Of a stretch of 64,000 nt of DNA, positions 20,402 through 58,998 are shown piece by piece. Position 1 is the stretch's first letter. Every line of letters begins with the position of its first letter. The translations under genes were made by a program, and so were the position numbers. The notes under the pieces were generated by a model. It searched no databases and had not been told where the DNA came from. It saw nothing but the letters and a program-made list of their open reading frames with translations. Source of the DNA: Bacteroidales bacterium (GTDB lineage: Bacteria > Bacteroidota > Bacteroidia > Bacteroidales > UBA932); NCBI GenBank assembly GCA_017938925.1, contig JAGBAO010000008.1, positions 1 through 64,000 of the forward strand, given 5' to 3'.

Positions 20402-23400
20402 CTATTTCAGCGTTTCAAGCATGAACTTAGACCAGAGGTTGTCGTTCTTCAGATCCAGGGAAGTCTGGAAACACTTCTGAGCCTCTGCCTTGTCACCGAG
20501 TCCCAGATGACCCAGTCCCATCATGCGGTAGGCCATGGTGTTGATTCCCTCGACGGTGAGGCTGGAGGTTCCTTCCGCTCCGTAGAAGCTGACGATATCC
20601 TCGACGATGGCAGCCTTACCTTCAGAAAGGAGGGCCTCATAGATGGCCTTTGCCTCTGCCTTCCTGCCGAGCTTCTCAAGGGCAAGACCCTTCCAGTAAC
20701 GGCAGAATGAGAGTTTAGTGTCCACTCCGACAGCCTTCTTGTAATATGAAGACGCCTTTGACTTCTGTCCCATCTTCTCATATGCCTGGCCTATGAAATA
20801 ATATGTCTGGGCATCACGAGGGCTTCTCTCGTCCACCAGGAAGACCTGATGGTTCATAGGGTACTCGAAAGACTTCTCGTAAAGAGCCACGGCGCCCTTG
20901 CAATCTCCTGCCGCAGCATTCTGATATCCGGCGCAGAGAAGGGCATCCACATATACCTCATGGAACGATGCCACTCCCTCACGGGTAGGGAAATAGCAGT
21001 TCTCAAGAAGGTCAAGCACATAGTCGTATTCTCCGACGAACGTTCCGGTCACGACCTCCTGGGCAAGCGGATAATAACGCTTCACAGCTGTCTTGTGATG
21101 AGATTTCAGAACCTCGTATCTCTTCTCCACAGCCTCTCCCTTTGCTTCAAGGACATGTTCCTGCTCCTCAAGGTAGAGGGCCTTTTCAGGTGCGAGCTCC
21201 ACAGCCTTTGCATAGCACTCTGCAGCCTCGTCATAGTTCTTGGTGTAGAGCCAGTTGTACCAGCCGAGGTTTCTCCATGCGAGATCCATCCGAGGATTCA
21301 GTTCCACACACCTTCTCCACTGCTGCGCCGCAGCATCCTGCTGCTTGTTGTAGAGGAGGCAGCCGAGGTAGTAATATGGCTTGTCGCTTTCCGGGAAGAG
21401 TTCCTTTGCCTTTTCAAGCACCGGAATGGTCTCCAGACGGAACGGGTTGCAGTAGTCCACCGGCATTGCAAGGGCTGCCTCATACATCGCCTTGTCGCCG
21501 GTGAGATAGCCAAGCCACATCTTCACGGTAGGATATGCCTTCAGGACATCTGCCTCCTTGAGGATCTTGACAGCTTCATCTGCGAATCCGTTGTGGAGAT
21601 AGAGGATGGCGAGCTCCATATAGTCCTCGATTTCGCCTCCCATGAGGGTCACATACTCTGAGGTTCCATTGAGCTTATCAAGTTCATATGTGGTGTAGAT
21701 GTTGAGCGGGTCCACAGCGAGGATGCCCTCAAGAAGAGCCTTCGCTTCGTCGGCACGGCCTTCTGCACGGAGTATGGAAGCCTTGAGATTGACCGCATTC
21801 CAGTTGTTGCCGTTGTTCTGGATGGCCTCGTCAAGACGGATCAGGGCATTCTGATAGTCCTTCACCTGAGAGTACATCTGGGCAAGCTGGTAGTTTGCCG
21901 GAGAGTTATATGCAAAGTTCCATGTCGCACGATAAAGAGTGTCCATAGCCTCTGCATACTTGCCCTGGGTCTTGAGGATAAGACCGAGATTGTACATGGC
22001 CTCGCAGTCCGCAGGACGGGTGTAGTCATGGGTCTGACGACGGATTGCACGGCGGAAATGGTTCGCAGCCTTCTCGTATTCTCCGTTCTTGCGCAGGATC
22101 ACACCCATCTGAGTGTTCGAACGTGTGTCGCCCGGATCACGGCGAAGCACTTCAAGGAAGTAGTCTGCAGGATTCACGAAAGGATTATGGAACTGAAGGT
22201 TACGGAGTCCCACGAAGTAGCACTCCTCGTTGTTCTCGATTTCATGAGGACGTTTCGGACGGTCCACTATCTCAGGAAGCGGCTTGTCGTAGCTTGTGTA
22301 CTTGCGAGGAGTGTAGCTGAGGACAGGCTTGCCGTCGGCATCATAAAGGTTCATGGTCACCTCATATGGCTTCCAAGCCTCATCCAGCTTCACTGTCTCG
22401 ACGAACGGCTTGTCCGGAGCGATATCGAGGATATTCTCATAAACCTTCTCACCGTCCCTCACGAGCTCCACCTTCATCCCCTTCTTTGCCTCAGTCGTGT
22501 TCACTCCAAGGAGATACTTACCCTTGCCCTGAGGTTCGAAGTTCATGGCTGCCAGAGTGTTGCCGGCCTTCACGCCCTTGATGTTGCGGATACCGTAGTA
22601 GTACTGGGTGAACTTCTTCACCTCGTAAGGCTTGTTCCAGTTGTAGTCCGGCTGGTTGTCGGAATATGCACCCATCATAAGCTCGATGTAGTGACCTGAA
22701 TCGTCTGTGAGGATCTTGGTGTCCCACATCGAGTTAGGGCCCCACAGCCAGAACTTGCCGCCCTTGTTGATATGGTGGTTGGCCGTGAGCATGGTTCCGG
22801 CATCGGCACCGTGGTCATATCCTGCCACGAAGTCCTCCTTGAGGTCATGCACGAACATGGAATTCGACATATAGTGGTTCTTCCACCATGACACATCCAC
22901 ATCGTCGTTGTAGAACTGCATGTCGTTGAAGGTCTCGTGGGTGATCGGCCAGTGCGCGAACCAGTTCTTGCAGTGGAAGGTCACGAAATCCACGCTCTGA
23001 GGGAAGATGATCTGGTAGTTCTCATCCACCTTTGTCGCAACGTTCGACCAATAGAGAAGCGAGTTGTCGTCTGCAGTAGAGTTGATCAGACGGCCGTTGA
23101 TCTCCATATAGGACTTGCCAGGACGGAGAGTGATGCCTATCGCCCACTGCATCCTGTGGCGGAACTCGACCTCACCGACCCAGATGGTCCTGCTGCCGTC
23201 CTCATTCTCCACGATCTTGCAGTCCACAGGCATGTTGGTGGTGTTGCGGTGATGGTGGAACACGTTCCACTCGACACCTCCGGATATCCATGAGCCGAGC
23301 ATGCCGACATTGGCAGGCTTGACGACCTCGTTATGATAGAAGATATCATAGCCGTTGGTCTTGTCCACGGCATAGAACAGGCGTCCTCCGATCTCAGGAA

Positions 23401-23704
23401 GCACGCACAGCTGCACATATTCGTTTTCAAGGAAGAGCGCCCTGTAGGTACGGTTTTCCTTCTGACGCTCCATATTCTCGTTCACGACATACATATTGTC
23501 GTCGAGAACGTAAGGATACACGCTTCTGCGTGCACGCTGATATGACCAGTCACGCTCGAAGATCGGAGCTGATTCAGGAGCTGAACCTATGTAGGTCGGC
23601 ATTTCGATCGTGCCCTCCCAGGCCTTGACGCCTGCCTCCTGTGCCCGGGCACTGATCAGGCCCAGACATGCGACACAAATGAATATAAGTGTTCTTTTCA
23701 TCAT
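20402..23704 (-). CDS. Secreted DUF5107-TPR protein (copy 1)
   Basis: 1100 residues with a signal peptide (cleavage after SARAQ, ~22). The N-terminal part (~25-360) is DUF5107: the conserved ISGGVEWNVFHHHR block and the CVLPEIGGRLFYAVDKTNGYD block are visible. These resemble galactose-mutarotase-like beta-sandwich carbohydrate-active domains. Tandem TPR repeats occupy ~505-1100. Last gene of the minus-strand set small peptide, fimbrillin-type protein, sialidase-like protein, DUF5107, 10 bp after its neighbour. A second copy is at 51562-54906. Carbohydrate binding or processing in the periplasm is inferred; the activity is unknown. Confidence 0.82.
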   Translation of the reverse strand: MMKRTLIFICVACLGLISARAQEAGVKAWEGTIEMPTYIGSAPESAPIFERDWSYQRARRSVYPYVLDDNMYVVNENMERQKENRTYRALFLENEYVQLCVLPEIGGRLFYAVDKTNGYDIFYHNEVVKPANVGMLGSWISGGVEWNVFHHHRNTTNMPVDCKIVENEDGSRTIWVGEVEFRHRMQWAIGITLRPGKSYMEINGRLINSTADDNSLLYWSNVATKVDENYQIIFPQSVDFVTFHCKNWFAHWPITHETFNDMQFYNDDVDVSWWKNHYMSNSMFVHDLKEDFVAGYDHGADAGTMLTANHHINKGGKFWLWGPNSMWDTKILTDDSGHYIELMMGAYSDNQPDYNWNKPYEVKKFTQYYYGIRNIKGVKAGNTLAAMNFEPQGKGKYLLGVNTTEAKKGMKVELVRDGEKVYENILDIAPDKPFVETVKLDEAWKPYEVTMNLYDADGKPVLSYTPRKYTSYDKPLPEIVDRPKRPHEIENNEECYFVGLRNLQFHNPFVNPADYFLEVLRRDPGDTRSNTQMGVILRKNGEYEKAANHFRRAIRRQTHDYTRPADCEAMYNLGLILKTQGKYAEAMDTLYRATWNFAYNSPANYQLAQMYSQVKDYQNALIRLDEAIQNNGNNWNAVNLKASILRAEGRADEAKALLEGILAVDPLNIYTTYELDKLNGTSEYVTLMGGEIEDYMELAILYLHNGFADEAVKILKEADVLKAYPTVKMWLGYLTGDKAMYEAALAMPVDYCNPFRLETIPVLEKAKELFPESDKPYYYLGCLLYNKQQDAAAQQWRRCVELNPRMDLAWRNLGWYNWLYTKNYDEAAECYAKAVELAPEKALYLEEQEHVLEAKGEAVEKRYEVLKSHHKTAVKRYYPLAQEVVTGTFVGEYDYVLDLLENCYFPTREGVASFHEVYVDALLCAGYQNAAAGDCKGAVALYEKSFEYPMNHQVFLVDERSPRDAQTYYFIGQAYEKMGQKSKASSYYKKAVGVDTKLSFCRYWKGLALEKLGRKAEAKAIYEALLSEGKAAIVEDIVSFYGAEGTSSLTVEGINTMAYRMMGLGHLGLGDKAEAQKCFQTSLDLKNDNLWSKFMLETLK

Positions 23705-23714
23705 TATTCTTTCA

Positions 23715-25502: not shown

Positions 25503-25513
25503 CTATCTGTTTT

Positions 25514-27922
25514 TTATTTTATCCAGGTATTACCCTCTTTTACAAGCATCGATGTCGCTGATCCAAAGGTACTGTTTATATGCGAAGTAAAGTTCTCTGA
25601 TGTGAGGGTTGGGTTTGTCAGCTGATTGCCACTTGTCTTGTTCGTAATCACGTACGACTTCGGAGCGATGCTGACATTCTTGATCGAGCTGGCTGTCACC
25701 TTGTACATTGCTATTCCAAGGCAGATTCCGGCCCTTGGAGTAACCTTCATTTTTGAATTCTCAAAAAGGAGCGAGAGAGCTCCTGTCACTTCTCCGCCAG
25801 AGATGTTCACACCATTAACAGCCACTCCGACCACTCCGCCACCGGCGCCAAGAATACTGCCCTCAGCAGATTTTACAGTACCTGACACTATATTTCCGGA
25901 AAGATCGGTATAAGAAGCGATTCCGGCAATTCCACCAAGGACGATTACATACTGATCCAAAGACCATGATGCACCGCTTGCAATGCCCGTATTCTTGCAG
26001 TTTGTCACCTGTGCCATATGCTCGGTGCTGTTTCCAATGATAGCACCTACAATACCTCCGACTGCGAGATTACGGTTTGCATTATTATCGGCATTGACGC
26101 CATTATTAGCTGATGCCACTCTTGCCTTCAGTATGACCTCACCGGCATTTTCACAACCTGTTATCTTGGTATTGAATCCCTTGCCTGACGCTGTTGCCTT
26201 TGCCTCACGTGCATCTGGCGATCCCACATACCAGCTGGCACCCTGACCGAGGATACCTCCAAGAGACATTGAGTTGTTGATAGCAGCTGTTGATGCTATA
26301 TAACGGTATCTCTCCAGTTTGCCCGAGTTCTTGCAAGTCGTGAATTCTACGCCATCAAGGTAGGAAAGTCCGCAGATTCCGCCCATAGCGTCACGGCCTG
26401 CCCTGTTTGTGTTTGTCTGTACCTTGATATTGGCCTTGTTTTCACAATTGATGAATTTTCCAGGTTTGCAAGTGCCATCTGTATTGATCGTTCCTGCACC
26501 TGTGTAAGAAGTCACAGTATGTCCCAATGCTGCAAATCCGCCACCATAGCAAGCATCCAATGAACTTGCTGGCTTATATGCAATATTTATAGTACCATTC
26601 ATAGTACTGTTCTGGATGGTACCGCCGTTAGCCCATACGAAACCACCGAATGCAAGACCGGCAGAAGAGTGATCGAATTCCTTATCAGTTGCAAAATCCG
26701 CATCCTCAAGGCTCACAGTGTGTGAACAGCCGTCGATAAGGCCGAGATTGACCTTTGCAAAACCGCAGAACGCGCCCTCGCCGAACTGAGTCAGCGCCCG
26801 GAATGTATTCACAAGATTGAGATTCTTCACTGCACCGTCTGCTCCGATGGTGTGGAACATAGGAAGGCTTCTGTCTGTGGAAGTCATAGTATGGCCGTTA
26901 CCATCAAACGTACCGTTGAATTCCTTGGAATCCACATATACGTAATCAGTATCAGCTGTAATATCCGCATAGAGGTTTACCTCACCGTCCTGTGGATTCA
27001 CCCAAGCAGAATAATCACCTGCCTCCACAGCTTTTGCAAAGGCATTATAACCAGCTACATTATAGATACCAGGAGCTGCCACTCGCAGGGTTGCGGTATA
27101 TACGTATCCGGCCTTGAGTTCAAGCTCCGTTGCTGCAGTCTGAGTCTTTGTGTGTCCGTTCACGTCAGTTATTGTGATGACAAGACCTGAAGGATATGTT
27201 CCCGCAGGAAGAGCGACAACTACAGGAGTGCCCTTTGCAACGCCCGCCTGACCACAGTCAAGAGTCACTTCAGTCGAAGCATTGCCTTCTGCAGGAGCAA
27301 GAGTGCAGGACTCTGCGCCAAAGGTGGCCTTGAAGGCACCGCTCATAGGCTCAGTGCCGAGGGACTTCACGGTAACTGTCTTGATGTTGTCGTTGTCATA
27401 GCCATCTACAGTATTGATAGTCAGATAGAGGTATGTCATCGCATGCGAGAAGGCAAGCGTACCCTCTTCATCCTCAGCATATCCGAGCATTACAGATGCC
27501 GCAGGATCGAATGATCCGGCTACGTACTTCTGCTCTGCAGGAAGTGCGACCACAGCCGTCTCCTGCGCAAAACCGGATGCCACAGCTGCAGGATACACAG
27601 CACAGAATGGAGCCGATACTCCAGAAACAGTGAATGTCGCTGCCTTTGCATTGTCTGCCTCCACATTGATTGCTACGGAAGCCGTACCGTTAACGGAAAT
27701 GACATCATCTTCTGACCAATTCACGGCATAGGCATTTCCTTCCGGTACCATCACGGTCTTGGTGCCGAGAGGATCCACGGTAACATCATCAGGTGCTGCG
27801 ACCTGAAGTTCAAATTCTCCTGCCGGATTGAGGGAGTCATCTGCCTGAGGCGCATTCTCCTTCAAACAGGAAACAGTCATTACAGCCAGAGCTGCAAGGA
27901 ATAAATTGAAATTCTTTTTCAT
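25514..27922 (-). CDS. Fimbrillin-type surface lipoprotein with GLUG-like beta-helix region
   Basis: 802 residues with lipobox Cys at 19 (MTVSC). The N-terminal part (~30-270) follows the fimbrillin/Mfa-like plan: TKTVM, VNWSEDDVISVNG, a FSHAMTYLYLTI strand, and a final LKAGYVYTATLRV. The C-terminal part (~300-800) is Gly-rich with repeated GGxxG and internal repeats (FNGTFDGNGHTM; GGIVGAIIGNSTEH; GGIAGIASY) like GLUG/right-handed beta-helix adhesins. It probably sits on the cell surface and binds glycans or host molecules. It follows a 46-residue peptide gene by 19 bp. Confidence 0.75.
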   Translation of the reverse strand: MKKNFNLFLAALAVMTVSCLKENAPQADDSLNPAGEFELQVAAPDDVTVDPLGTKTVMVPEGNAYAVNWSEDDVISVNGTASVAINVEADNAKAATFTVSGVSAPFCAVYPAAVASGFAQETAVVALPAEQKYVAGSFDPAASVMLGYAEDEEGTLAFSHAMTYLYLTINTVDGYDNDNIKTVTVKSLGTEPMSGAFKATFGAESCTLAPAEGNASTEVTLDCGQAGVAKGTPVVVALPAGTYPSGLVITITDVNGHTKTQTAATELELKAGYVYTATLRVAAPGIYNVAGYNAFAKAVEAGDYSAWVNPQDGEVNLYADITADTDYVYVDSKEFNGTFDGNGHTMTSTDRSLPMFHTIGADGAVKNLNLVNTFRALTQFGEGAFCGFAKVNLGLIDGCSHTVSLEDADFATDKEFDHSSAGLAFGGFVWANGGTIQNSTMNGTINIAYKPASSLDACYGGGFAALGHTVTSYTGAGTINTDGTCKPGKFINCENKANIKVQTNTNRAGRDAMGGICGLSYLDGVEFTTCKNSGKLERYRYIASTAAINNSMSLGGILGQGASWYVGSPDAREAKATASGKGFNTKITGCENAGEVILKARVASANNGVNADNNANRNLAVGGIVGAIIGNSTEHMAQVTNCKNTGIASGASWSLDQYVIVLGGIAGIASYTDLSGNIVSGTVKSAEGSILGAGGGVVGVAVNGVNISGGEVTGALSLLFENSKMKVTPRAGICLGIAMYKVTASSIKNVSIAPKSYVITNKTSGNQLTNPTLTSENFTSHINSTFGSATSMLVKEGNTWIK

Positions 27923-27941
27923 ACTTTTCTCTTTTAAAGGA

Positions 27942-28082
27942 TTAACACCAGATGTCCCCCAAGTCTTCCATTCCTAAGCCAGGAGCGAGGCCATCCAATT
28001 GCGAATTGCACAGAGCGCCCTCCGTGCACACCTCAAGCTCACTTATGCGAGGAGCCTGATAGTCAAGTTTGTTCTCTTTCAT
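27942..28082 (-). CDS. Small peptide upstream of a fimbrillin-type gene (copy 1)
   Basis: 46 residues, M-K-E-N-K-L-D-Y-Q-A-P at the start and -GDIWC at the end. It shares a spaced pattern with the 48-residue peptide at 55114-55260: YQxP, then LE plus a hydrophobic residue, then a Gly followed by [AI]LCxS, and later a G-[ML]-E-D near the C-terminus. There is no signal peptide or membrane helix. Both copies sit 12-19 bp before a fimbrillin-type lipoprotein gene in the same operon. The function is unknown; leader peptide, small regulator or modified peptide precursor are all possible. Confidence 0.65.
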   Translation of the reverse strand: MKENKLDYQAPRISELEVCTEGALCNSQLDGLAPGLGMEDLGDIWC

Positions 28083-28163
28083 CTGTTATCAGTTTAATTG
28101 GTTATAATATCAGCGGCAGAGTCTGCATATGCGCAAGCAGCCATAAAGTTCAGACTCTCAATA

Positions 28164-29967: not shown

Positions 29968-31857
29968 TTAAAGATTCTTCACGTACACCACTTTTTCAAG
30001 TTCGCCGGTCATGTTTGCAGCTGCGTCATAGAGCGAAGCACTGAATGCTGCCACTCCGTCGGACAGTTTGAGTTCGTCCTTAGGGATGCTTACCTCAAGG
30101 ATATATCCCTCATCTTCGTCGCTGTTGTCATCGATTGTTCCGCCAAGGGCAACCTTCACAGCGGCAGTTGATTCGATGACAGACCATTTGCCGGAGTTGT
30201 AACGGCTTATCGACGATCTTCCGTCTGGCACGATGGTCAATCTCAGGGCACCGTCAGCCACGACATCACCAGGAGCTACAGGAGAAAGGATGAGAGTGAC
30301 CTTGTCTCTCTTGGATATGGTCTTGTCATGTGTCTCCATAAGGAAATAGACGTTGTCTGAATCGCTTGAAGAGCGCAAATTGGCAAAGGTGGTCTCTCCC
30401 GCATCAAGGTACAGAGCCTCGTCCGTGTCAGCCCAGTCCGAATTGGAAGCATCCACCACAGGGGTTCTCTTAGTGGCACTTATATCGTGATTGAGAGCGA
30501 ACTTGGCAAGGGCAACGCCTAATCCGCCATTCTGAGAATATTTATTGGTCATCACAAGAATGTGAGGGGCAGTTACGGTCTCAGATGCCCATCCTCCATA
30601 TTTAGGGAACGGAGAAGAAGAACAAACCTTCTGCCAGTTCTTTGCCTTATGGTCTCCTATCCTGTACATAAGTTTGGAGTTGGTGTTCTGAGTATAGGTG
30701 AGCACTGTCTCGCCCGAAGGGAACTGAGCAAGAGCAGGGCCTATGCCGTCCTTTCCTCCGTCAAGGTCATCGATCCTCTTGCAATCAGCTGCTACCGTGT
30801 GGTCTTCAGGAAGCTTCACCCAGTTGCCGTCTTCCGGAGAGAACACAACTGAAATACTGTGCATCTGCTTGCTGTCGGTCCAGTAATCCACAACTTCCAC
30901 TGCAAATGCAAACTGATTGGAATCATTCAGCAGGACTCCGACCGGCATCTGGTCGCTTGCCAGATTCTGCTGTTTCTTCTCAGACCAATATACAGACCTC
31001 ATGACAAAGTAAGGATATTCTCCGTGCTCCGGCTCCCACGTCTTGCCTCCATCCTTAGAGATGACAAGGGCTGTGCCTGAGTTTGCATCTGAAATCCACG
31101 GACGCGGATAGGCGAAATAGCAGTGGATGTCTCCATTTGGCAGCTGAATCAGATGAGGCTCCCAGTTAGGGCCCTTGAAAAGGTGGAACTCCTCACCCCA
31201 GGTCTGGCCGTTGTCCTTGGATATCTTGCCGATGATGCCGTGGTCAAGCCATCCTTCCAGTTTGTAATAAGAGCCCACGCTCCGGTAGGAACTTATCACG
31301 AGCAGGTCACCATTTGCAAGGACTATATGATTGGCATTGGTGAAATCATGAGCATCCTCCTTGCCGAGACTGTTGGTCACAAACCTCTGCTTCCAGAGAA
31401 CACCCTTGCATTCCCAGTTGACGAAGTCTTTGCTTGTCGCATAGTAGGTACTGTGACCGTTTCCGTTATTCGACGCAACTGCTGCCTGGTATGTAAGGAA
31501 ATATGTTCCATCCCTGAGGATAGACACTCGAGGATAGGCAGGATAGTTGACCCTGAGATTCTTGGCTGGAATCTCTACATAGGTCGAGGTCATCTTCACG
31601 ATGGAAGACCTTGACGTGAGTCCTGCATGAGAATTGACTGCAGCCTCTCCCTGATTCAGTTCCTCAAAGAGGGAGAGATTCAGAGACTGCGGCTCCTGAA
31701 TGGAATCCTGAGGATTCTCTGGAAGTGTGTCATTCGGCTGCTCCTGTGGCTCATCCTGAGGCTCATCCGGTATCGGATCCGGCTCACAGGAGACGACTCC
31801 GGCCAGCAGGGCGAAAGCCATACTGAAAGTTGCAAAATTGATAAGAGTTTTCTTCAT
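29968..31857 (-). CDS. Sialidase-like beta-propeller lipoprotein with CBM9-like domain (copy 2)
   Basis: About 629 residues from the MKKTL start at 31857; the open frame to 31884 runs back into the SusD gene. Lipobox (GVVSC) is followed by a Pro/Glu-rich tether. The conserved NSHAG motif comes next, then a propeller with Asp-boxes (SKDNGQTWGEE; SKDGGKTWEPE) and a C-terminal CBM9-like domain starting VDASNSDWADTDEALYL. Clear paralogue of 23715-25502. Located third in the SusCD operon, which ties this family to glycan import rather than to an independent sialidase unit. Confidence 0.76.
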   Translation of the reverse strand: MKKTLINFATFSMAFALLAGVVSCEPDPIPDEPQDEPQEQPNDTLPENPQDSIQEPQSLNLSLFEELNQGEAAVNSHAGLTSRSSIVKMTSTYVEIPAKNLRVNYPAYPRVSILRDGTYFLTYQAAVASNNGNGHSTYYATSKDFVNWECKGVLWKQRFVTNSLGKEDAHDFTNANHIVLANGDLLVISSYRSVGSYYKLEGWLDHGIIGKISKDNGQTWGEEFHLFKGPNWEPHLIQLPNGDIHCYFAYPRPWISDANSGTALVISKDGGKTWEPEHGEYPYFVMRSVYWSEKKQQNLASDQMPVGVLLNDSNQFAFAVEVVDYWTDSKQMHSISVVFSPEDGNWVKLPEDHTVAADCKRIDDLDGGKDGIGPALAQFPSGETVLTYTQNTNSKLMYRIGDHKAKNWQKVCSSSPFPKYGGWASETVTAPHILVMTNKYSQNGGLGVALAKFALNHDISATKRTPVVDASNSDWADTDEALYLDAGETTFANLRSSSDSDNVYFLMETHDKTISKRDKVTLILSPVAPGDVVADGALRLTIVPDGRSSISRYNSGKWSVIESTAAVKVALGGTIDDNSDEDEGYILEVSIPKDELKLSDGVAAFSASLYDAAANMTGELEKVVYVKNL

Positions 31858-31871
31858 TGATCCGTTAAACT

Positions 31872-41363: not shown

Positions 41364-47783
<6,420 letters not shown>

Positions 47784-47790
47784 AATATCT

Positions 47791-50043
47791 TTATTCTAAA
47801 ACATTTAACATCAAGGTCTGAAGTGTCGAGCTGTCCGGTCCGACCATTATCTCGAAGTCTCCCGGCTCAAGAGCCAGCTGCGGCGCCCCTGTCTCGAAAG
47901 GGTCCACATAGTACCACGACAGCAGGTCCGGAGTTATTTCAAAGCTGACCTCAACGGTCTCTCCTGCCTTCACACGGACCTTCCTGAAGGCCTTAAGCTC
48001 CTTCACCGGACGGGTCATCGACGAATACACATCGTGGATATACAGCTGAACGGTCTCGTCTGCATCACGGGAACCGGTGTTGGTCACCTTCACCGAAGCC
48101 GTCACAGAACCATCCGACGGCATCGCATCCGCACTGAGGGCAAAGTCCGTATATTCAAAAGTCGTATAGCTGAGTCCGTATCCGAAAGGATAAAGAGGAC
48201 TGTTAGGGCTGTCCATATAGCAGCTGCTGAACCTCTTGTATGAATCCGTCTTTGCCGGACGGCCTCCGTTCTTCATATTATAATATAGAGGTATCTGACC
48301 CACGTTGCGAGGGAAGGTCATGGTCAGCTTTCCGGAAGGATTGACCCTGCCATATACTACATCAAGGATGGCATCAGCCGCCTCACTTCCTCCGTACCAC
48401 ACATCAAGGATAGCCGCCATGTTGCTGTCCTCCCATTCGAGCGTCATCGGACGGCCAGAGAAAAGCAGCAGCACCACAGGCCTGCCGGTATTCACGAGAG
48501 CCTCCAGCAGACGCTTCTGAGGCTGAGGGATATCCAGACTCGTGCGGCTGGAAGCCTCTCCGGTCATCCATGCCGGCTCACCGACAGCAGCAAGCACGAC
48601 ATCCGACTGCCTTGCCGCAGCGACAGCCTCGCGGATCATCTGAGACTCGCTGCGAGGATCACGGACGTATTTCCTGTTGCGGCATGCGGCCTGTTCCAGC
48701 TCCGCGTCCTCAAGCATATTGCTTCCCTTGGCAAACACGAAATCGCATCCGGCCTCCTTCATGGCTGCAAGAAGTGAACGGCAGTCATCATATGCCGCTC
48801 CCTGCCATGATCCGGTGTATTGTGCTCCCGCATCGGCCAGCGGACCCACCAGAGCCACCTTCTTCCCTTTCGAAAGAGGAAGTGTGCCGTCGTTCTTCAG
48901 AAGGACGAACGACTCGGCTGCAATCTCACGGGCCGCCTTGCGGTGCTCGTCCGTATATATCCTGTTCTGCTCACATCTGAGGAACTTGTATGGATCATCC
49001 AGCAATCCCAATTTCTCTTTCGCCTCCAGCACCCTGCGGCAGGCCTGGTCGACCGCCTTCATGGAGACCCTGCCTTCCTTGACCGAGGCGGCAAGCTCTC
49101 CTACAAAGCCTTCCGTCATCATGTCGGAATCCACGCCGGCATTCAGAGCCAGTTCGCTGACAGTCTTCCTGTCACCGATTCCGTGACGGACCATCTCGCC
49201 CACTGCATTATAGTCCGAGACCACGAATCCGTCGAAGCCCCACTGATTGCGGAGGACCTCGGTCATGAGCCACCTGTTTCCGGTTGCAGGAATTCCGTTC
49301 ACATCATTGAACGAAGACATGATGCTCGCCACTCCGGCATCAACGGCCGCCTTGTATGGAGGGAAATATTCGTTATACATCCTTGCTGGTGACATATCGG
49401 TCTCGCGATAGTCTCTTCCTGCCTCAGAAGCACCGTAAAGGGCGAAATGCTTCACACAGGCCAGAATCTCATCGTCAGCCTTCAGGTCTCCCTGGATTCC
49501 TCGAACCATGGTCTCCGAATAGACCGAAGCCAGATAAGGGTCCTCTCCGGCACCTTCCACACAGCGTCCCCAACGGGGGTCACGGCAGATGTCCACCATG
49601 GGATTATACAGCCAGGTGAGTCCGTCAGAAGACGCCTCCACCGTACTTATGCGGGCAGCACGTTCCATCGACTCAGGATTCCAGGTTGCCGCCAGTGCAA
49701 GAGGAACCGGGAAAGTCGTGCGGTATCCATGGATAATGTCGGCTCCGAACAGGAGAGGGATTCCCAGACGGGACTCCTCCACCGCCATCTTCTGCCATGC
49801 CATGAGTTCATCCCTGTCATGACGTCCGAACAGGCTTCCTACAGCTCCGGAGCGGACCTTCTCCGCCACTCCGGTGCTCTGCTGCTCGCCTGTCACCGCT
49901 CCGCGGGGAGCCACAAGGCAGTTCAGCTGTCCGAGCTTCTCCTCCAGGGTCATCTGCGACATCAGTTCATCGACCTTCGTCTTCTCGGGAACACAGGCCG
50001 ACAGGAGGAATACTGCCGAAAGGAATATGGATATGCCTCTCAT
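47791..50043 (-). CDS. bglX: Beta-glucosidase-type GH3 lipoprotein
   Basis: 750 residues with lipobox (LLSAC, Cys 17). GH3 N-terminal barrel (~25-345) contains KHFALYGASEAGRDY and the nucleophile Asp in GFVVSDYNAVG (~275). GH3 C-terminal alpha/beta sandwich (~375-600) and a fibronectin III-like domain (~645-735) follow. Architecture is that of periplasmic BglX. Beta-glucosidase or beta-xylosidase activity is expected, but the subsite residues do not allow a firm choice. Third-to-second gene order in the operon: 3 bp after the GH39-like gene. Confidence 0.92.
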   Translation of the reverse strand: MRGISIFLSAVFLLSACVPEKTKVDELMSQMTLEEKLGQLNCLVAPRGAVTGEQQSTGVAEKVRSGAVGSLFGRHDRDELMAWQKMAVEESRLGIPLLFGADIIHGYRTTFPVPLALAATWNPESMERAARISTVEASSDGLTWLYNPMVDICRDPRWGRCVEGAGEDPYLASVYSETMVRGIQGDLKADDEILACVKHFALYGASEAGRDYRETDMSPARMYNEYFPPYKAAVDAGVASIMSSFNDVNGIPATGNRWLMTEVLRNQWGFDGFVVSDYNAVGEMVRHGIGDRKTVSELALNAGVDSDMMTEGFVGELAASVKEGRVSMKAVDQACRRVLEAKEKLGLLDDPYKFLRCEQNRIYTDEHRKAAREIAAESFVLLKNDGTLPLSKGKKVALVGPLADAGAQYTGSWQGAAYDDCRSLLAAMKEAGCDFVFAKGSNMLEDAELEQAACRNRKYVRDPRSESQMIREAVAAARQSDVVLAAVGEPAWMTGEASSRTSLDIPQPQKRLLEALVNTGRPVVLLLFSGRPMTLEWEDSNMAAILDVWYGGSEAADAILDVVYGRVNPSGKLTMTFPRNVGQIPLYYNMKNGGRPAKTDSYKRFSSCYMDSPNSPLYPFGYGLSYTTFEYTDFALSADAMPSDGSVTASVKVTNTGSRDADETVQLYIHDVYSSMTRPVKELKAFRKVRVKAGETVEVSFEITPDLLSWYYVDPFETGAPQLALEPGDFEIMVGPDSSTLQTLMLNVLE

Positions 50044-50046
50044 ATA

Positions 50047-51441
50047 TTATCGGATGTCAATGTAAACGACAGAGCCCGGAGCAATCCACATCGAAGCCTT
50101 GCCCTCATTGAATTCTACCGGAACCTGCGTATAGACATGGAACTCGTCAGTAACATAGCTCACCGCCTCCTTTATCTCCTTGCCGGCAATCTCGATCTCC
50201 ACCTTCCTGTTGGCAACCACATTCTTGTCGTTTGTGAAGAAGGACATCAGCACTCCGCATCTTCCGTCCTCTCCTACGGCTGATGTTACATACACATCCG
50301 GACAGTCGGTCACCACAGACTTCACCTGAGTGCCGAGATTAACGAGATTCTTCCATGCATAGAGAGAATAATACTGAGGAAGCGGAGCTCCCTTATAGAA
50401 TTCGAAAAGACCGTTGTATGACACTCTCGGGCGGGCATCGTAGTACATTAGCATATCCACCGGTCCGTCCTGGCATGCAGACATCACGGATGCAAGGAAA
50501 GCTGCACCCTTATGGGAAGTCACCACCTCCATGGTCTCCTTCCACTCGGTCGTCCAGTTGGAAAGATAGTTCCACTCATCCAGAATCATCTCCACATCGG
50601 AATATCCGTACTTATCGAGCATAGCCTTGATGCGGTCGTTCTTTGCGATGAACTTGTCCGGTCCCGATGCATAAAGGTGATATGAGAAGAAATCAAGATC
50701 CACCTTGTGCTCAGACATATACTTGAGGAAATTGTCTGCCCAGGCATCATTCTCGCAAAGCGCAGGTCCGCCTATCTTCAGGTGAGGGAAGCACTTGTTC
50801 AGATGATTCGCCGCGGTCTCATAGAACTTGAAGAAATCAGTGTCCGAACCGTTCCATGTAGGAGACATGTTCTTCTTCCAGCGTCCGTCCTTGAAGCCCA
50901 GGTCAGGCTCATTCCAGATCTCCCAGTACTCTATGTCATAATGGAAGCCGTCTGCCCATCCCTCAGTGTAGTGACGGATGATATGCTCGCATATCCTGGC
51001 CCATTTCTTATAGTCCTTCGGCGGAATCACGCCATATTTCTTGCTCCATTTCTCGATGGACTGTCCCAGACGGTAGAACACCTTGGTTCCGGCTGCCTGG
51101 ATATCGGACAGAAGCACGTCGGTCAATTCAAAGTCATATGACTCAGGGTCGTTCACATCCGCCTCGAAATCAGGAAAAACGCATGTGATGTCCACGGTGT
51201 GAGCCCAGCCCCAGTTGATGGGAGCATCATGCAGACGTGCATACGGAAACTGAGCAGCCTTGTATGCAGGGAAATTGGTCGTGCTTGAATTAGGATTCGG
51301 ACTCATCGGTCCGTTGTTCACGGAGTTCATCAGCTTGATATTGCCCACCGGCTCATCAGCCTTCACAACGATCTGCGCCACTGCAGAGGCTGCAGAAACA
51401 GCCACACAGAGGGCCATCAGAAACAGTCTTTTGGTATTCAT
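50047..51441 (-). CDS. GH39-like glycoside hydrolase
   Basis: About 464 residues from MNTKR at 51441, the start of the signal peptide; the frame upstream adds an implausible 19 residues. A TIM-barrel enzyme of clan GH-A: acid/base Glu in EIWNEPD (~174) and nucleophile Glu in MILDEWNY (~285), followed by a small beta domain. Best fit is family GH39 (beta-xylosidase, iduronidase and related activities). The exact substrate is unknown. First gene of the five-gene minus-strand GH operon. Confidence 0.82.
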   Translation of the reverse strand: MNTKRLFLMALCVAVSAASAVAQIVVKADEPVGNIKLMNSVNNGPMSPNPNSSTTNFPAYKAAQFPYARLHDAPINWGWAHTVDITCVFPDFEADVNDPESYDFELTDVLLSDIQAAGTKVFYRLGQSIEKWSKKYGVIPPKDYKKWARICEHIIRHYTEGWADGFHYDIEYWEIWNEPDLGFKDGRWKKNMSPTWNGSDTDFFKFYETAANHLNKCFPHLKIGGPALCENDAWADNFLKYMSEHKVDLDFFSYHLYASGPDKFIAKNDRIKAMLDKYGYSDVEMILDEWNYLSNWTTEWKETMEVVTSHKGAAFLASVMSACQDGPVDMLMYYDARPRVSYNGLFEFYKGAPLPQYYSLYAWKNLVNLGTQVKSVVTDCPDVYVTSAVGEDGRCGVLMSFFTNDKNVVANRKVEIEIAGKEIKEAVSYVTDEFHVYTQVPVEFNEGKASMWIAPGSVVYIDIR

Positions 51442-51482
51442 CGTGTCATCAATTATGTTTATGAGTGCTAAATTAGTAAAAT

Positions 51483-51512
51483 GCGGGCGCCTGCACAAGC
51501 CAAGGCGCCCGC
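51483..51512 (-). terminator. GC-rich hairpin between DUF5107 and GH39-like genes
   Basis: GCGGGCGCCT (51483-51492) pairs perfectly with AGGCGCCCGC (51503-51512), 10-nt loop, followed on the minus strand by ATTTTACTAATTT. It separates the DUF5107 transcript from the GH operon. The weak U-run leaves open some read-through. Confidence 0.7.
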
Positions 51513-51561
51513 CAATCAGACTTTTGGTTGAAATATATCGGTTTTTGGCCGGAAATTATAA

Positions 51562-54500
51562 TCACTCGGCAAGTTTTCCGAGATGATGCAAAGACCAGAG
51601 ATGGTCGTTCCTTTCCCTGAGCGCCTTACGGAATGCCCTTCTTGCCAGCCAATCCCTTCCAAGCGCCTTATATCCGACTCCCTGCATATAATATGCTGCC
51701 GCATTGACATCCTGTTCGTACGGTCCCCTGTCAAAACTCTCCCAGAATCTCTGAACATAGGTGGTGATTCCAGCCTTTCCTGTCTTGACAATATCCTTGT
51801 ACATGGACTTTACCTGCGCCTTCGGATCAAGCTTTCTCATAGCAAGGCCCTTTTCGTAATCATATATTCCGTCAGCAGGCTTGACAACGACCTCAGACGC
51901 CATCTGATAGTATCTTGAAGCATTTTCAGCATCTCCGACCTTCTCATATGCAAGGCCTATGTTGTAATAGACCTGCGCATCGCGGGCATAGTACTCAAGA
52001 TGGGCGTAACCGTGGTTGTCCGGATAGTCATTCGCCATCATCATATATTTGAGAGCCCCCTCGTTGTCGCCTTTCTCCCATGCCTTGAAACCGGAAAGAA
52101 GACAGGCGTCCACATAGATGTCATGCAGGTCCTCTATATGCTCCCTTCTGCTGTAGAACCTTGTCAGCAACTTCTCCAGAACCTCCTCATACTCTCCCTT
52201 GAGAATTCTCTGCTTGAGGGCCTTCGTCTCGGAATCATAACGCTTTTCATACAGCTTTTCCCTTCCATGGAACAGATCATATCTGTCCTGAAGAGGAGCA
52301 TTCATGACCTCCATGATCTCGTCGCACTCTGCAAGGAAGATCGCGTTGCCGTCCTTGTCCGCCTCAATGGCTCTGAGATAGTAATCCAAGGCTATGTCAT
52401 AATCGGAAGGATTCTTTGTCTGGAACTCATCCTTGAACCTCCAGTACCATCCGATATTACGCAGTGCCATTGCAAAATCCGGCTTTGATTCAACCGCCTT
52501 TTCCCAGCAGGCTAGAGCCTTGAGCGGCTGCTTGTGATAGTAGAGATTGCCGAGGTAATACCAGGCATTGTAGCCTGAAGGATTGTATTCCAGGGACTTT
52601 TCAAGAGGCTTGACAGTTTCCAGACGGAACGGGAACACATAGTCGATTCTACCGCTCTCAGCCTTGTCGAACCACTTGGCAGCCTGACGGGCGTCACCTT
52701 CTGCATCAGCCATATATCCCAGCCAATACTCCACCGTAGGATATGGCTTCGCTGCTTCTGAAGCCTTGAGGATATCCTGCGCCTCCTTCGTAAAGCCATT
52801 ATTATAGTAGTACAGCGCAAGTTCGAGGTGGGACTCAGGAACGCCTCTCAGCAGAGCCTTGAGTTCTGATGCCGGAGCGGCACCCAGAAGCACAAGTTCG
52901 TTGGTCGCATAGTAGTTGAGCGGATCGAACCTCACCACCTCTCTTGCCAGAGCAACTGCCTCTGACTTCCTGCCTGCATGGCGAAGAAGAGTGGTCTTGA
53001 GATTTCTGGCATCTATATTCATACCGTTGTAGTTCACCGCCATCTCCGCCTCCTCAAGGGCACGTCCTGCATTTCCCAGCTTTGCTGAGATCTGGGCAAG
53101 CTGATAATAGGCTGCGGAAGCATATTCATAGTCCCATGCCGCCCTATAAAGCGTATCTATAGCCGGTTCCCATTTTTCCTGAGCCTTGAGGATAAGTCCG
53201 AGATTGTACATCGCCTCGCCGTCAGAAGGACGGGTGTAGTTGGCGGTCTGGCGGCGTATCGCCCTGCGCAAGTGCTCTGCAGCCTTGTCATAGTCTCCAG
53301 CCTTACGGAAGATTATACCCACCTGGGTGTTAGTCCTCACATCACCCGGATCACGACGCAGAACCTCGTTGAAATAGTCCATCGGATCGACATGTGCCTG
53401 GTGGAACTGAAGGTTACGCATTCCTACATAGAACAGCTCCTCGGTATTCCCGATGCTCTTCGGATCCGGATTCACAGGAAGAAGGTCCTCCGGATGAGGC
53501 TTGCTCAGGTCATGCTTATACGGATGGTAGTCGATAAGAAGCTCTCCCTCGGCAGAATACAGGCTCATGAGCACCTCAGTCGGTTCCGCGACCTCTGCCG
53601 CATCCACCTTGAAATCATCTGCAAAAGGTCTGTCAGGCGCAATGGTAGCCATCTTTGAGTACAGCACCTTTCCGTTATGCGTCACCTCAACCCTCGCATT
53701 GCGGCGGATCTGAGTGACATTCGCAGCGACATGAACCGCTCCCTTAGGATCTATATCCATATTGACAGTGGCCTTCTCGTTGCCTCTGTTGACGTTGTTG
53801 AGATTCCTGATGCCATACCAGTACGCAGTGAACTCCTTGGTCTCCTGAGGATTGATCCAGCAATAGTCAGGCTGATTGTCCGAATACGCGGCAGTCATAA
53901 GCTCCACATACGGGCCGTCTGAATCAGTGAGCGTCACGCAGTCCCAGGCATGGCCATAGGCATGAGGACCCCAGGTCCAGAATTTTCCTCCTTTATTTAT
54001 ATTGTGGTTTCCGGCAAGCATCGTTCCAGCATCGACACCATGGTCATATCCTCCGACAAAGTCGTCCTGAAGATCATGGATGAACACAGAATCACCGGTA
54101 AGCGAAGGCAGGTTCTTCCACCAGCTGATGTCCTTGCCGATATAAGCCGGATTGTTCTTATATGGAGACTGAGGGACAGGCCAGTGCATATGACTGAGCT
54201 TATGGTGGAACATTCCGAACTCAGTGCATTCAGGGAAGATGATCTGATAGTTTTCATTCGCATGGGTGGCGACATTGTTCCAGTGAAGCATCGAATTGCG
54301 GTCAATCGAATTGTTGAAGAAACGTCCGGTCACCTCTATATATGATTTGTCCGGGTAGAGGGTCAGTCCCACTGCCCAGCTCATCCTGTGACGGTTCTCG
54401 ACCTCTCCGACCCAGATGGTCTTGGAGCCATCGCCATTGTCGACGAGTTTATAATCAATCGGATACTGGGAAGTCGCGCGGTGATGATGGAAGACATTCC

Positions 54501-54906
54501 ATTCGACACCTCCGGAGATCCATGCTCCAAGCATTCCCACATTCGCAGGCTTGATCACGCTCTGACGATAGAATATCTCGTATCCGTTCGTCTTGTCAGT
54601 CGCATAGAAAAGACGGCCGCCGATGTCAGGAAGCACACAGACCTTTATATAGTCATTCTCAAGATACAGGGCCCTGTGAGAGGAATCAACCTTTTCGATC
54701 GTAGGATTGTCGTTCATGGCATACGGATACACACCACGTTTTGCTCTCTGATAGGCAAAGTCGCGCTCGAAAAGAGGTGCTTTCTCAGGTGCGTTCACCC
54801 TGTAGGTCGGAAGATTTTCAACTCCTTCCCACATCTTCACCTGGCCGTTCTGCGCCGAAGCTGTCAGAGCGGCAAACAGCAGAATAATAGCATATGTCTT
54901 TTTCAT
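51562..54906 (-). CDS. Secreted DUF5107-TPR protein (copy 2)
   Basis: About 1114 residues from MKKTY at 54906, the signal-peptide start (…LTASAQ). Paralogue of 20402-23704: ISGGVEWNVFHHHR and CVLPDIGGRLFYATDKTNGYE are conserved, then tandem TPR repeats from ~500. It is divergent from the small-peptide/fimbrillin/sialidase-like operon starting at 55114, whereas copy 1 is the last gene of the matching operon. Carbohydrate-related periplasmic function is inferred. TPRs suggest protein partners, perhaps the adjacent enzymes. Confidence 0.82.
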   Translation of the reverse strand: MKKTYAIILLFAALTASAQNGQVKMWEGVENLPTYRVNAPEKAPLFERDFAYQRAKRGVYPYAMNDNPTIEKVDSSHRALYLENDYIKVCVLPDIGGRLFYATDKTNGYEIFYRQSVIKPANVGMLGAWISGGVEWNVFHHHRATSQYPIDYKLVDNGDGSKTIWVGEVENRHRMSWAVGLTLYPDKSYIEVTGRFFNNSIDRNSMLHWNNVATHANENYQIIFPECTEFGMFHHKLSHMHWPVPQSPYKNNPAYIGKDISWWKNLPSLTGDSVFIHDLQDDFVGGYDHGVDAGTMLAGNHNINKGGKFWTWGPHAYGHAWDCVTLTDSDGPYVELMTAAYSDNQPDYCWINPQETKEFTAYWYGIRNLNNVNRGNEKATVNMDIDPKGAVHVAANVTQIRRNARVEVTHNGKVLYSKMATIAPDRPFADDFKVDAAEVAEPTEVLMSLYSAEGELLIDYHPYKHDLSKPHPEDLLPVNPDPKSIGNTEELFYVGMRNLQFHQAHVDPMDYFNEVLRRDPGDVRTNTQVGIIFRKAGDYDKAAEHLRRAIRRQTANYTRPSDGEAMYNLGLILKAQEKWEPAIDTLYRAAWDYEYASAAYYQLAQISAKLGNAGRALEEAEMAVNYNGMNIDARNLKTTLLRHAGRKSEAVALAREVVRFDPLNYYATNELVLLGAAPASELKALLRGVPESHLELALYYYNNGFTKEAQDILKASEAAKPYPTVEYWLGYMADAEGDARQAAKWFDKAESGRIDYVFPFRLETVKPLEKSLEYNPSGYNAWYYLGNLYYHKQPLKALACWEKAVESKPDFAMALRNIGWYWRFKDEFQTKNPSDYDIALDYYLRAIEADKDGNAIFLAECDEIMEVMNAPLQDRYDLFHGREKLYEKRYDSETKALKQRILKGEYEEVLEKLLTRFYSRREHIEDLHDIYVDACLLSGFKAWEKGDNEGALKYMMMANDYPDNHGYAHLEYYARDAQVYYNIGLAYEKVGDAENASRYYQMASEVVVKPADGIYDYEKGLAMRKLDPKAQVKSMYKDIVKTGKAGITTYVQRFWESFDRGPYEQDVNAAAYYMQGVGYKALGRDWLARRAFRKALRERNDHLWSLHHLGKLAE

Positions 54907-55113
54907 TTGGCTGATGATATTAGATTTCTGCTGCAAAGGAAACACTTTAACAGACACGATTTTTCACAAAAATCCCGACTTATGCAAGAATACTCCCAAA
55001 TGCAAGAAAAATCTCAAAACACGCAAAGGAAATCCCATCCACTGCGATCACTATATAGTTATAAGGTAAAATATTCCATTTTTGCCGATAAAATAACACT
55101 AAAAACATCAGAG

Positions 55114-55260: not shown

Positions 55261-55272
55261 GGAGGAACAGCT

Positions 55273-57291: not shown

Positions 57292-57294
57292 CCG

Positions 57295-58998
57295 ATGAAA
57301 ACATTAGCAGTAATCACAGCAATGTTATGTCTTACATATCATGCAGGAGCGCAGGAGGTGCTTCTGCATGATATTTTCGACATGAACACCTCACCAGCAC
57401 AGCTCAATTCTCATGCTGGGGAAGAGAAATGGAGCCGCCTCCAGCCGATTCATTCCTATACGAAGCTCATCGGCAACGACTTCCTTCTCGGCAGCCTGCC
57501 GGACTTCAATCCGAAGGAATATCCGTGCAGCTACCCTCGTCTGAAGAAGATGGCAGACGGCCGTTTCATTCTCTTCTACATGCCTCAGTCCCACGGATCA
57601 AGCATCTATTACACCATCAGCGAGGACCTTCTGTCATGGTCGGATCCACTCCTGCTTCTTGAGTCCTACAAGACCGTAATCAAGGACAAGGAAGTGCAGA
57701 TCAGATATGTGAACATGGATGCTGCAGTCCTTCCTGACGGAGATCTGCTCGGAGTGTGCCAGTTCTGGTGCAGGGAACATTACAGGGCCCAGCTCGGAAC
57801 CGGTATAGTCACACTCAGAAGTTCCGACAACGGAAAGACATGGACATCGCCGCAGGTCATTTATGAGGGATCCAACTGGGAGCCGTATCTGCTGGTGCTG
57901 CCGGACGGAAAAATTCACTGCTACTTCACTGATTCCACTCCGGAAACCTGGAATTCAGGCGTTTCCCTGATGGTGTCCGAGGACAACGGACGTTCATGGA
58001 GCCCTAAGATGAGGGTTTGCCGCAGCTATAAATATGAATATGACAAGGAAACCACCCTCGACAAGAGCATTTACACCGACCAGATGCCATCATTCCGCGT
58101 TCTCAACGACGGCAGGACACTGATTGGTTTTCTTGAGGCCCGCCTTGCCAACCCGCCTTCGAACAGCGGTAAGACCTATCACAGGATGTCTGTCGTCTAT
58201 AACGACGGCTTCGAATGGAAGGACCTCGGGGAAGACAGCGAGGGACCGGCAGACAGGCACACATGGATCTTGGGTGGTGCCGCCGGATATGTGGAGACCT
58301 TCCCTTCCGGTGAGGTGGCCATTTCATGCGGTAGAGGCAAAGGCTGGAGCATAAAGCTTCTTGACCACACCGGAGGTCGTGACGGCAAGGTGGATTGGGA
58401 AGAAGGATGGTTCGTTCCTTTCAACAAGAGAGGCGGCTGGGGTGCCATAGAGAGAATAAACGACAATATGCTCGTCTCCACAGCCGGAGAGAGCAGAGGC
58501 GGCATCTGGACCGGACTGTCATACCTCAATAACACGATTTCTGCAAACAAGGAGCGTATAGCCATTGACGGCAATCCGAAGGAATGGCGCAATGACGACG
58601 CGCTGTATCTCGGCAGCAAAGGCGGCAGCGAGACTGTGTTCAGGGCAGCATACGGCAGAAAGCATGTCTATCTGCTTGCAGAAACCCTGTCTCCGGACAA
58701 GACAGACAAAGTTCAGGAAATCATTTTGTGCAATGAAGCCGGCAAGAGCGTCTGCATCCGATATGACGGAGACGGAGCTCTGGAAGGCACCTCAGAAGGC
58801 GTCATCACAAAGACCCGCTGCGGAAGAAGCGCAGAAGGGGAAGAAGGATATTGCGCAGAATTCGCCATTCCATTCTCCGCACTGGAGACTGCCCGAGGAG
58901 AGACACTGAGAATTCACGCCACAACCGGTGATAACGAGACATTCACCGACTCCTGTCGGGAAAATCCGGATTCATGGCTGAGGATCAGTCTGAAGTGA
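57295..58998 (+). CDS. Sialidase-like beta-propeller protein with CBM9-like domain (copy 3)
   Basis: 567 residues with a signal peptide (…YHAGAQ); no clear lipobox, unlike the other two copies, so it may be periplasmic. The LNSHAG motif is present (~residue 37). Propeller strands include SYPRLKKMADGRFILF and an Asp-box (SSDNGKTWTSPQ; SEDNGRSWSPK). The CBM9-like domain starts IDGNPKEWRNDDALYLG (~425-567). Third paralogue in the window. Convergent with the regulator gene at 58985, overlapping by 14 bp. Confidence 0.75.
   Translation: MKTLAVITAMLCLTYHAGAQEVLLHDIFDMNTSPAQLNSHAGEEKWSRLQPIHSYTKLIGNDFLLGSLPDFNPKEYPCSYPRLKKMADGRFILFYMPQSHGSSIYYTISEDLLSWSDPLLLLESYKTVIKDKEVQIRYVNMDAAVLPDGDLLGVCQFWCREHYRAQLGTGIVTLRSSDNGKTWTSPQVIYEGSNWEPYLLVLPDGKIHCYFTDSTPETWNSGVSLMVSEDNGRSWSPKMRVCRSYKYEYDKETTLDKSIYTDQMPSFRVLNDGRTLIGFLEARLANPPSNSGKTYHRMSVVYNDGFEWKDLGEDSEGPADRHTWILGGAAGYVETFPSGEVAISCGRGKGWSIKLLDHTGGRDGKVDWEEGWFVPFNKRGGWGAIERINDNMLVSTAGESRGGIWTGLSYLNNTISANKERIAIDGNPKEWRNDDALYLGSKGGSETVFRAAYGRKHVYLLAETLSPDKTDKVQEIILCNEAGKSVCIRYDGDGALEGTSEGVITKTRCGRSAEGEEGYCAEFAIPFSALETARGETLRIHATTGDNETFTDSCRENPDSWLRISLK

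What the first reader, a model, noticed from the sequence alone, without database searches (positions are those of the whole stretch)
20402..58998. Repeated module: small peptide, fimbrillin-type lipoprotein, sialidase-like/CBM9, DUF5107-TPR
The four elements occur together at 20402-28082 (one operon) and again at 51562-58998 (DUF5107 divergent from the other three). The sialidase-like and fimbrillin-type parts occur a third time inside the SusCD operon. The fimbrillin-type proteins differ completely in their C-terminal domains (GLUG-like, FISUMP-like, discoidin-like), as if the binding head is swapped while the rest is kept. This suggests an undescribed cell-surface glycan recognition and processing system.
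Basis: partly seen in the sequence, partly recalled or inferred. Interest (0 to 1): 0.75.

Follow-up and report, generated by a model that had tools for sequence, protein, structure and literature searches.

The report
Gut-bacterium glycan locus with swappable heads
A gut bacterium's sugar-degrading locus carries, in two arms, an uncharacterised pair of proteins that travels together in other gut bacteria, plus surface-type proteins with one shared base, interchangeable heads and a tiny companion peptide; the substrate and the peptide's role are unknown.

Summary
Peptide, fimbrillin-type lipoprotein, BNR/CBM9-like protein and DUF5107-TPR lie at 20402-28082 and again at 51562-58998; BNR plus fimbrillin-type genes recur in the SusCD operon. 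They sit in a polysaccharide utilization locus with SusC/SusD, two GH97, GH3, GH39-like and a hybrid regulator. They are not one four-part machine but two systems. (1) A DUF5107-TPR subtype and a BNR/CBM9-like family form a recurrent pair: 5 of 5 genus genomes with the subtype (this one included) have BNR, against 2 of 96 others; 23 of 44 BNR loci in named records contain DUF5107, and distances correlate. (2) Peptide plus fimbrillin-type lipoprotein is a genome-wide cassette: 27 of 27 peptides precede such a gene, of which there are 55, with a shared N-domain and mostly unrelated C-terminal parts. Best reading: a glycan locus in which the lipoproteins capture glycan, BNR proteins are probable non-GH33 glycosidases and DUF5107-TPR acts in the periplasm. 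Substrate and peptide function remain unknown.

The parts
20402..23704 (-). DUF5107_A: Sec-signal (by eye) DUF5107 domain (about residues 72-369) plus TPR superhelix, 1100 aa
   Evidence: Pfam PF17128 152 bits; dN/dS 0.036 against L082
23715..25502 (-). BNR_A: lipoprotein (by eye), sialidase-like Asp-box propeller plus CBM9-like C-terminus
   Evidence: family profile hits sialidase chains and the XynA CBM9
25514..27922 (-). FIM_A: lipoprotein, fimbrillin-type N-domain plus GLUG-like head
   Evidence: PF13149 34.2 bits, Glug 15.3 bits below cut-off; N-profile
27942..28082 (-). small peptide A (46 aa, YxxP...LCxS type)
   Evidence: dN/dS 0.21 against L083
28316..29932 (-). FIM_B: lipoprotein with fimbrillin-type N-domain and a different head; no peptide upstream
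   Evidence: N-profile hit; no Pfam hit at E<=1
29968..31884 (-). BNR_B: lipoprotein (by eye), BNR/CBM9-like
   Evidence: PF13088 33.4 bits; alignment A6
31872..33644 (-). SusD-like
   Evidence: PF07980 164.7 bits
33657..36938 (-). SusC-like TonB-dependent receptor
   Evidence: Plug, CarboxypepD_reg and barrel domains
36958..37845 (-). FIM_0: short fimbrillin-like lipoprotein
   Evidence: PF13149 33.6 bits
37889..41224 (-). HTCS-like regulator; receiver and AraC domains found, no kinase domain listed at E<=0.001
43589..51498 (-). GH97, GH97, GH3 and GH39-like enzymes
51562..54957 (-). DUF5107_C: second DUF5107-TPR protein, divergent from the other three
   Evidence: PF17128 162 bits
55114..55260 (+). 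small peptide C (48 aa)
   Evidence: dN/dS 0.17 against L120
55273..57291 (+). FIM_C: lipoprotein, fimbrillin-type N-domain plus a different head
   Evidence: N-profile; no Pfam hit over cut-off
57295..58998 (+). BNR_C: BNR/CBM9-like, Sec signal without lipobox (by eye)
   Evidence: PF13088 44.1 bits
58985..62908 (-). hybrid two-component system (sensor propeller, kinase, receiver, AraC)

Best explanation
The region is a polysaccharide utilization locus made of two related arms. Shown: SusC/SusD, GH97, GH97, GH3, a GH39-like enzyme and a hybrid regulator surround two copies of a recurrent DUF5107-TPR plus BNR/CBM9-like pair, and three fimbrillin-type lipoproteins share an N-domain but carry unrelated heads, two of them behind a conserved small peptide. 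Inferred: the lipoproteins sit on the outer surface and capture glycan with their heads, in the role of surface glycan-binding proteins. The BNR proteins are exo-acting glycosidases of the sialidase-fold superfamily that use invariant glutamates instead of the sialidase arginine triad, guided by a CBM9-like domain. SusC/D imports the products. DUF5107-TPR, a Sec-exported protein with conserved polar residues, processes or holds the imported oligosaccharide in the periplasm while GH97, GH3 and GH39 finish it. The peptide is a translated cytosolic helper for making or exporting its lipoprotein.
For: PUL content. Linkage of the DUF5107 subtype to BNR: 5 of 5 genus genomes with the subtype (this genome included) against 2 of 96 without; 0 of 24 neighbourhoods of other DUF5107 proteins show a BNR hit, six frames searched; 23 of 44 BNR loci contain DUF5107; distance correlation r=0.78 over 21 loci and 0.63 over 12 thinned ones, 0 of 5000 permutations each. 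BNR: Y117, R119, E242, Q312, E330 and E392 are identical in 39 of 39 sequences. DUF5107: N94, D114, H152, H244, E341 and Q351 are identical in 43 of 43. Purifying selection on the parts tested, peptides included. 38 of 55 fimbrillin-type domains lie within 10 kb of a SusD, against about 21% of random positions.
Against: The DUF5107 profile does not resemble an aldose-epimerase profile (hhalign probability 0.1%), so an enzymatic role rests on conservation alone. 21 of 44 BNR loci show no DUF5107, though many of these stretches are short. The one Firmicutes locus with both (L104) has a DUF5107 that scores only 409 bits on the window profile, within the range of the other subtypes (124-803), so it is weaker support than the Bacteroidales loci. 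In the order-wide sample only this genome has strong BNR copies; 8 of 198 genomes have weaker ones, so the pair is rare and patchy. In another family (G211) 13 of 14 related peptides are not followed by a recognised fimbrillin-type gene.
Confidence: 0.5

Rival explanations
1. The genes are ordinary PUL passengers: PULs in this lineage collect BNR, DUF5107 and fimbrillin-type genes, and the co-occurrence shows shared context rather than a shared job.
For: Many PUL genes co-occur loosely (general knowledge); BNR loci without DUF5107 exist (21 of 44); 55 fimbrillin-type domains are spread through the genome; the fimbrillin part in particular looks like context.
Against: Linkage is subtype-specific: 0 of 24 other DUF5107 loci have BNR. 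A more distant DUF5107 and a BNR protein also lie one gene apart in a Clostridia MAG locus where no SusC/SusD was found. Distances correlate, although joint inheritance of a whole PUL would also give this.
Confidence: 0.25
2. The fimbrillin-type proteins are tip pilins of type V pili, their heads the ligand-binding domains, and the peptide is a pilus assembly factor.
For: [quoted passage not shown] the N-domain profile has one weak PDB hit, a putative cell adhesion protein (E 0.0023).
Against: P_gingi_FimA matches lie elsewhere: three clustered on C13 and one on C2 (two of the four over cut-off). The 55 N-domain genes are dispersed and enriched near SusD. A shared stalk encoded elsewhere is not excluded.
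Confidence: 0.15
3. The peptide is a regulatory leader ORF: its translation controls the downstream lipoprotein and the product has no function.
For: 27 of 27 lie just upstream of the gene, often 3-25 bases away; short, no signal peptide seen by eye, no family match.
Against: Amino-acid motif conserved over very different sequences (YxxP, LCxS); dN/dS 0.17-0.21 in two comparisons; related peptides stand without such a gene in G211.
Confidence: 0.3

Closest known systems
Polysaccharide utilization loci with SusC/SusD and HTCS regulators
   Same: SusC/SusD pair, GH97/GH3/GH39-like enzymes, hybrid two-component regulator
   Different: Two arms with DUF5107-TPR and BNR/CBM9-like proteins that lack the GH33 triad; fimbrillin-type lipoproteins where surface glycan-binding proteins are usually placed (recalled)
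Sialidase superfamily (GH33; GH93 exo-arabinanase)
   Same: Asp-box propeller; the family profile matches sialidases (E 3.5e-13) and an exo-arabinanase (E 1.6e-6)
   Different: Only one arginine in the propeller is identical in 39 of 39; invariant glutamates instead
DUF5107 / PDB 5cd6 TPR-domain protein
   Same: Same domain, E 4.7e-43
   Different: No function was found; one paper in the library holds the term, on an unrelated subject by its title (search listing)
Type V pilins / Mfa-like fimbrillins
   Same: Lipoprotein with an N-terminal fimbrillin-type domain and a variable C-terminal part
   Different: Dispersed and PUL-associated; the P_gingi_FimA matches in the genome lie elsewhere

Membership tests
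Polysaccharide utilization locus | Adjacent SusC and SusD genes with carbohydrate-active enzymes and a regulator | tested here: met
GH33 sialidase | Asp-box propeller | tested here: met
GH33 sialidase | Conserved arginine triad (recalled) | tested here: not met
   R119 39/39, R370 32/39, R201 32/39, R296 24/39 in alignment A6; by alignment columns, no structure
CBM9 | C-terminal CBM9 domain | tested here: inconclusive
   Profile hits the XynA CBM9 at E 4.9e-5; BNR_A alone 16.3 bits against cut-off 23.4
DUF5107 | PF17128 over cut-off | tested here: met
   152 and 162 bits against 24.4
Aldose-1-epimerase / mutarotase | Sequence-profile similarity of DUF5107 to the epimerase family | tested here: not met
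   hhalign probability 0.1% with profiles of 11 and 6 sequences; fold not testable
Mfa_like_1 (PF13149) | Domain over cut-off | tested here: inconclusive
   FIM_A and FIM_0 yes, FIM_B and FIM_C no; 2 of 27 cassette proteins match at E<=0.01, yet 27 of 27 match the N-profile of the others
Type V pilus tip pilin | Located with stalk and anchor pilins and polymerised | tested here: inconclusive
   P_gingi_FimA hits only on C2 and C13; anchor families not searched; polymerisation not testable
FISUMP / discoidin / GLUG heads | Model match in the C-terminal part | tested here: inconclusive
   Glug 15.3 bits against 20.5 in FIM_A; no such match for FIM_B or FIM_C; I did not check that each library holds those models

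The most novel reading that the evidence does not exclude
This lineage has an unrecognised modular surface-display system: a dedicated small peptide works as partner (helper, propeptide-like factor or export adaptor) for a large family of lipoproteins that keep one fimbrillin-type base and exchange glycan-binding heads, plugged into one PUL after another. Here it is combined with a new two-protein catalytic pair, DUF5107-TPR plus a non-GH33 propeller glycosidase.
Probability: 0.25. Interest if true: 0.72.

Novelty: new variant of a known kind. Interest (0 to 1): 0.5.

Why it matters
It gives two testable units where annotation is silent: a co-inherited DUF5107/BNR pair that probably attacks one class of glycan, and a peptide-plus-lipoprotein cassette present 27 times in one genome, whose peptide is found in 66 of 101 genomes of the genus sample. 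If the cassette is a display platform, it would help explain how these poorly characterised gut and rumen bacteria change glycan recognition by exchanging one domain.

Tried and rejected
Rejected: arm A and C as a local duplication (47.5% and 27.7% identity; nearest relatives lie in other records). DUF5107 as an aldose-epimerase relative by sequence. BNR as GH33. The four elements as one obligatory set. The protein between DUF5107 and BNR in the Clostridia locus looks by eye like a solute-binding lipoprotein, but no search supports that (best E 1.1, to a maltose-binding protein among others; no useful family hit), so I make no claim of it.

Led nowhere: structure prediction (off), hence no fold search; Rfam (no hit at gathering score); literature for DUF5107, for fimbrillin-type proteins in PULs and for the small peptide. 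I saw the listings only, some of them cut (20 of 27, 10 of 14, 10 of 43); no listed title or abstract start was about these pairings. I read passages of PMC12632263 and PMC9409006. The library lacks most subscription journals.

Limits of counts. The FIM N-profile (A8) was built from genes next to peptides, so 27 of 27 is partly circular; the checks are the leave-one-out test (27 of 27) and other genomes (22 of 30 peptides). Of those 8 misses five or six look fimbrillin-like by eye and two (L189, L194) do not. The 55 domains are the 56 matches with two pieces on C17 counted as one. Contigs C5 and C13 share about 9 kb without a mismatch, so one peptide, two FIM domains and probably one SusD are counted twice. 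Of the 23 loci with DUF5107, four hold only a piece of it and L104 a distant one. In one search I took one BNR per locus by choice and left out 5 of the 23 loci (L091, L093, L105, L117 incomplete; L125 with a weak BNR), adding both window arms and L040. The random 21% treats contigs of unknown length as free of SusD; a hand upper bound is about 30%. In one search peptides under 60 aa were left out by mistake; one search replaces it. The first check for BNR beside other DUF5107 proteins used a non-overlapping ORF set; one search repeats it on all frames with the same result.
Full report
What is there. The window is part of a 2.67 Mb assembly (34 contigs). Its BNR relatives in named records are mostly uncultured Bacteroidales MAGs, many from the gut of ruminants and other animals by title, some titled Cryptobacteroides or Alistipes. 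Between 20 and 63 kb lies a polysaccharide utilization locus: SusC, SusD, two GH97, GH3, a GH39-like enzyme, an HTCS and an HTCS-like protein without a listed kinase domain. Arm A is a tight run of peptide, FIM_A, BNR_A and DUF5107_A, separated from the SusC-SusD-BNR_B-FIM_B run by a hairpin followed by a T-run (read by eye). Arm C holds the same four parts, with DUF5107 divergent. FIM_A, B and C have lipoprotein signals; BNR_A and BNR_B are lipoproteins, while BNR_C and the two DUF5107 proteins have Sec signals without a lipobox (all by eye).

DUF5107 and BNR as a pair. DUF5107 occurs in 25 of 101 genomes of the genus sample. I fetched 29 neighbourhoods around these copies besides the window. 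Five of them, in G004, G009 (two), G040 and G099, carry a DUF5107 protein close to the window's copies (1547-1859 bits on the A+C profile, the other 24 at most 803). With the window's genome that makes five genomes. BNR relatives at E<=1e-15 occur in seven of the same 101 genomes: all five of those plus G002 and a weak one in G074. By hand, the chance that 5 drawn genomes all fall among 7 of 101 is about 3e-7. In four of the five neighbourhoods BNR lies within the fetched 20 kb; in G099 it lies about 20 kb further on the same contig, with FIM-type, SusC- and SusD-like genes between (gene names in that gap by eye). None of the 24 neighbourhoods of other DUF5107 proteins has a BNR hit at E<=1e-3. 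In the named collection 44 BNR loci were found, 39 in records titled as Bacteroidales or Bacteroidia members and 5 in Firmicutes; 23 of 44 contain DUF5107 and 31 a fimbrillin-type domain, with peptide directly upstream in 11. The Clostridia MAG locus L104 carries a DUF5107-TPR protein (Pfam 184 bits) and a BNR protein (36 bits) one gene apart, amid genes that look clostridial by eye; its DUF5107 is a distant one (409 bits on the A+C profile), inside the range of the subtypes that have no BNR beside them. DUF5107 and BNR distances correlate (r 0.78 over 21 loci; 0.63 over 12 thinned loci; 0 of 5000 permutations each). DUF5107 changes least (dN/dS 0.04-0.06) and BNR more (0.11-0.18), as if the TPR protein were the constant core and the BNR proteins were tuned to substrates. 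A GH5-like protein of about 370 aa is a frequent third partner (12 of 44 loci, 11 of the 23 with DUF5107), but the window lacks it. Pfam Cellulase matches two of the four members scanned (24.9 and 26.9 bits); one had a GH2 TIM-barrel match and one none.

What BNR and DUF5107 may do. The BNR family profile matches sialidases over the Asp-box blades, an exo-arabinanase more weakly, and the XynA CBM9 over the C-terminus. Y117, R119, E242, Q312, E330 and E392 are identical in 39 of 39 sequences while the other propeller arginines vary, so I expect a glycosidase, but not GH33. In DUF5107, 43 sequences including the distant subtypes keep N94, D114, H152, N208, H244, D270, E341 and Q351, and PDB 5cd6 is a solved relative for which I found no function. 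A profile comparison with aldose epimerases is negative; the mutarotase idea is recall only.

The peptide cassette. The peptide profile finds 27 peptides in the genome at E<=0.01, and each is followed by a fimbrillin-type N-domain within 400 bases (27 of 27); 27 of 55 such domains have one. A broader profile adds a few more that also precede such domains (compared by hand). In 29 loci of other genus genomes 22 of 30 peptides precede such a domain. Across the genus sample 66 of 101 genomes carry the peptide; in the order sample 4 of 198 do with one profile and 3 of 198 with the broader one, both counts including this genome. In G211, of another family, there are 14 related peptides and only one is followed by a recognised fimbrillin-type gene (1.5 kb flanks and a profile tuned to this genus), so the link is not universal. 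The N-domains of the 27 cassette proteins recognise each other (172 of 351 pairs; leave-one-out 27 of 27) while the C-terminal parts rarely do (11 of 351 pairs). Pfam families found at E<=0.01 include BACON, fn3, TIG, Glug, Big_3 and NHL, each in one to three of 27 proteins. Peptides are under protein-level constraint (dN/dS 0.17 and 0.21 against L120 and L083; 0.54 between the close pair L120/L121 with few changes; the pair window/L121 is saturated). No Pfam or NCBIfam model matches the two window peptides.

Position of the cassette. 38 of 55 fimbrillin-type domains and 17 of 27 peptides lie within 10 kb of a SusD, against about 21% of random positions (hand upper bound 30%). P_gingi_FimA matches lie on C2 and in a cluster on C13, away from most of these genes. 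I therefore read the FIM proteins as PUL surface lipoproteins with exchangeable binding heads; surface exposure and glycan binding are inferred.

Verdict. It splits into an uncharacterised PUL partner pair and a genome-wide peptide-lipoprotein cassette. Neither has a demonstrated function. I rate it a new variant of a known kind, with the cassette as the more surprising half.

Noticed in passing
genome-wide, e.g. G000:C16 and C5: 55 fimbrillin-type N-domains and 27 small peptides in one 2.67 Mb genome; Pfam Mfa_like_1 matches only 2 of the 27 cassette proteins at E<=0.01.
   Followed up: yes
L083 5316-9341; L120 11654-15418; L121 11468-15232: Close relatives carry an extra long BNR protein (1254-1341 aa) beside the module that the window lacks.
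   Followed up: no
L098 and L099 (Paenibacillus): BNR/CBM9-like relatives lie next to a large protein of about 1070 aa; in L098 it has DUF4962, heparinase-like and carbohydrate-binding domains; no DUF5107 was found in either locus.
   Followed up: partly
G211 loci L238-L264: A different Bacteroidales family has 14 related peptides, 13 without a recognised fimbrillin-type gene after them, many with a tail of serine, arginine, tryptophan and acidic residues by eye.
   Followed up: partly
G000:C5:285000-294000 and C13:24500-33500: About 9 kb identical between two contigs: a recent duplication or an assembly redundancy.
   Followed up: partly
window 41364-43592: 742 aa protein that looks like an outer-membrane receptor by eye, without any Pfam hit at E<=0.001, beside GH97.
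   Followed up: no
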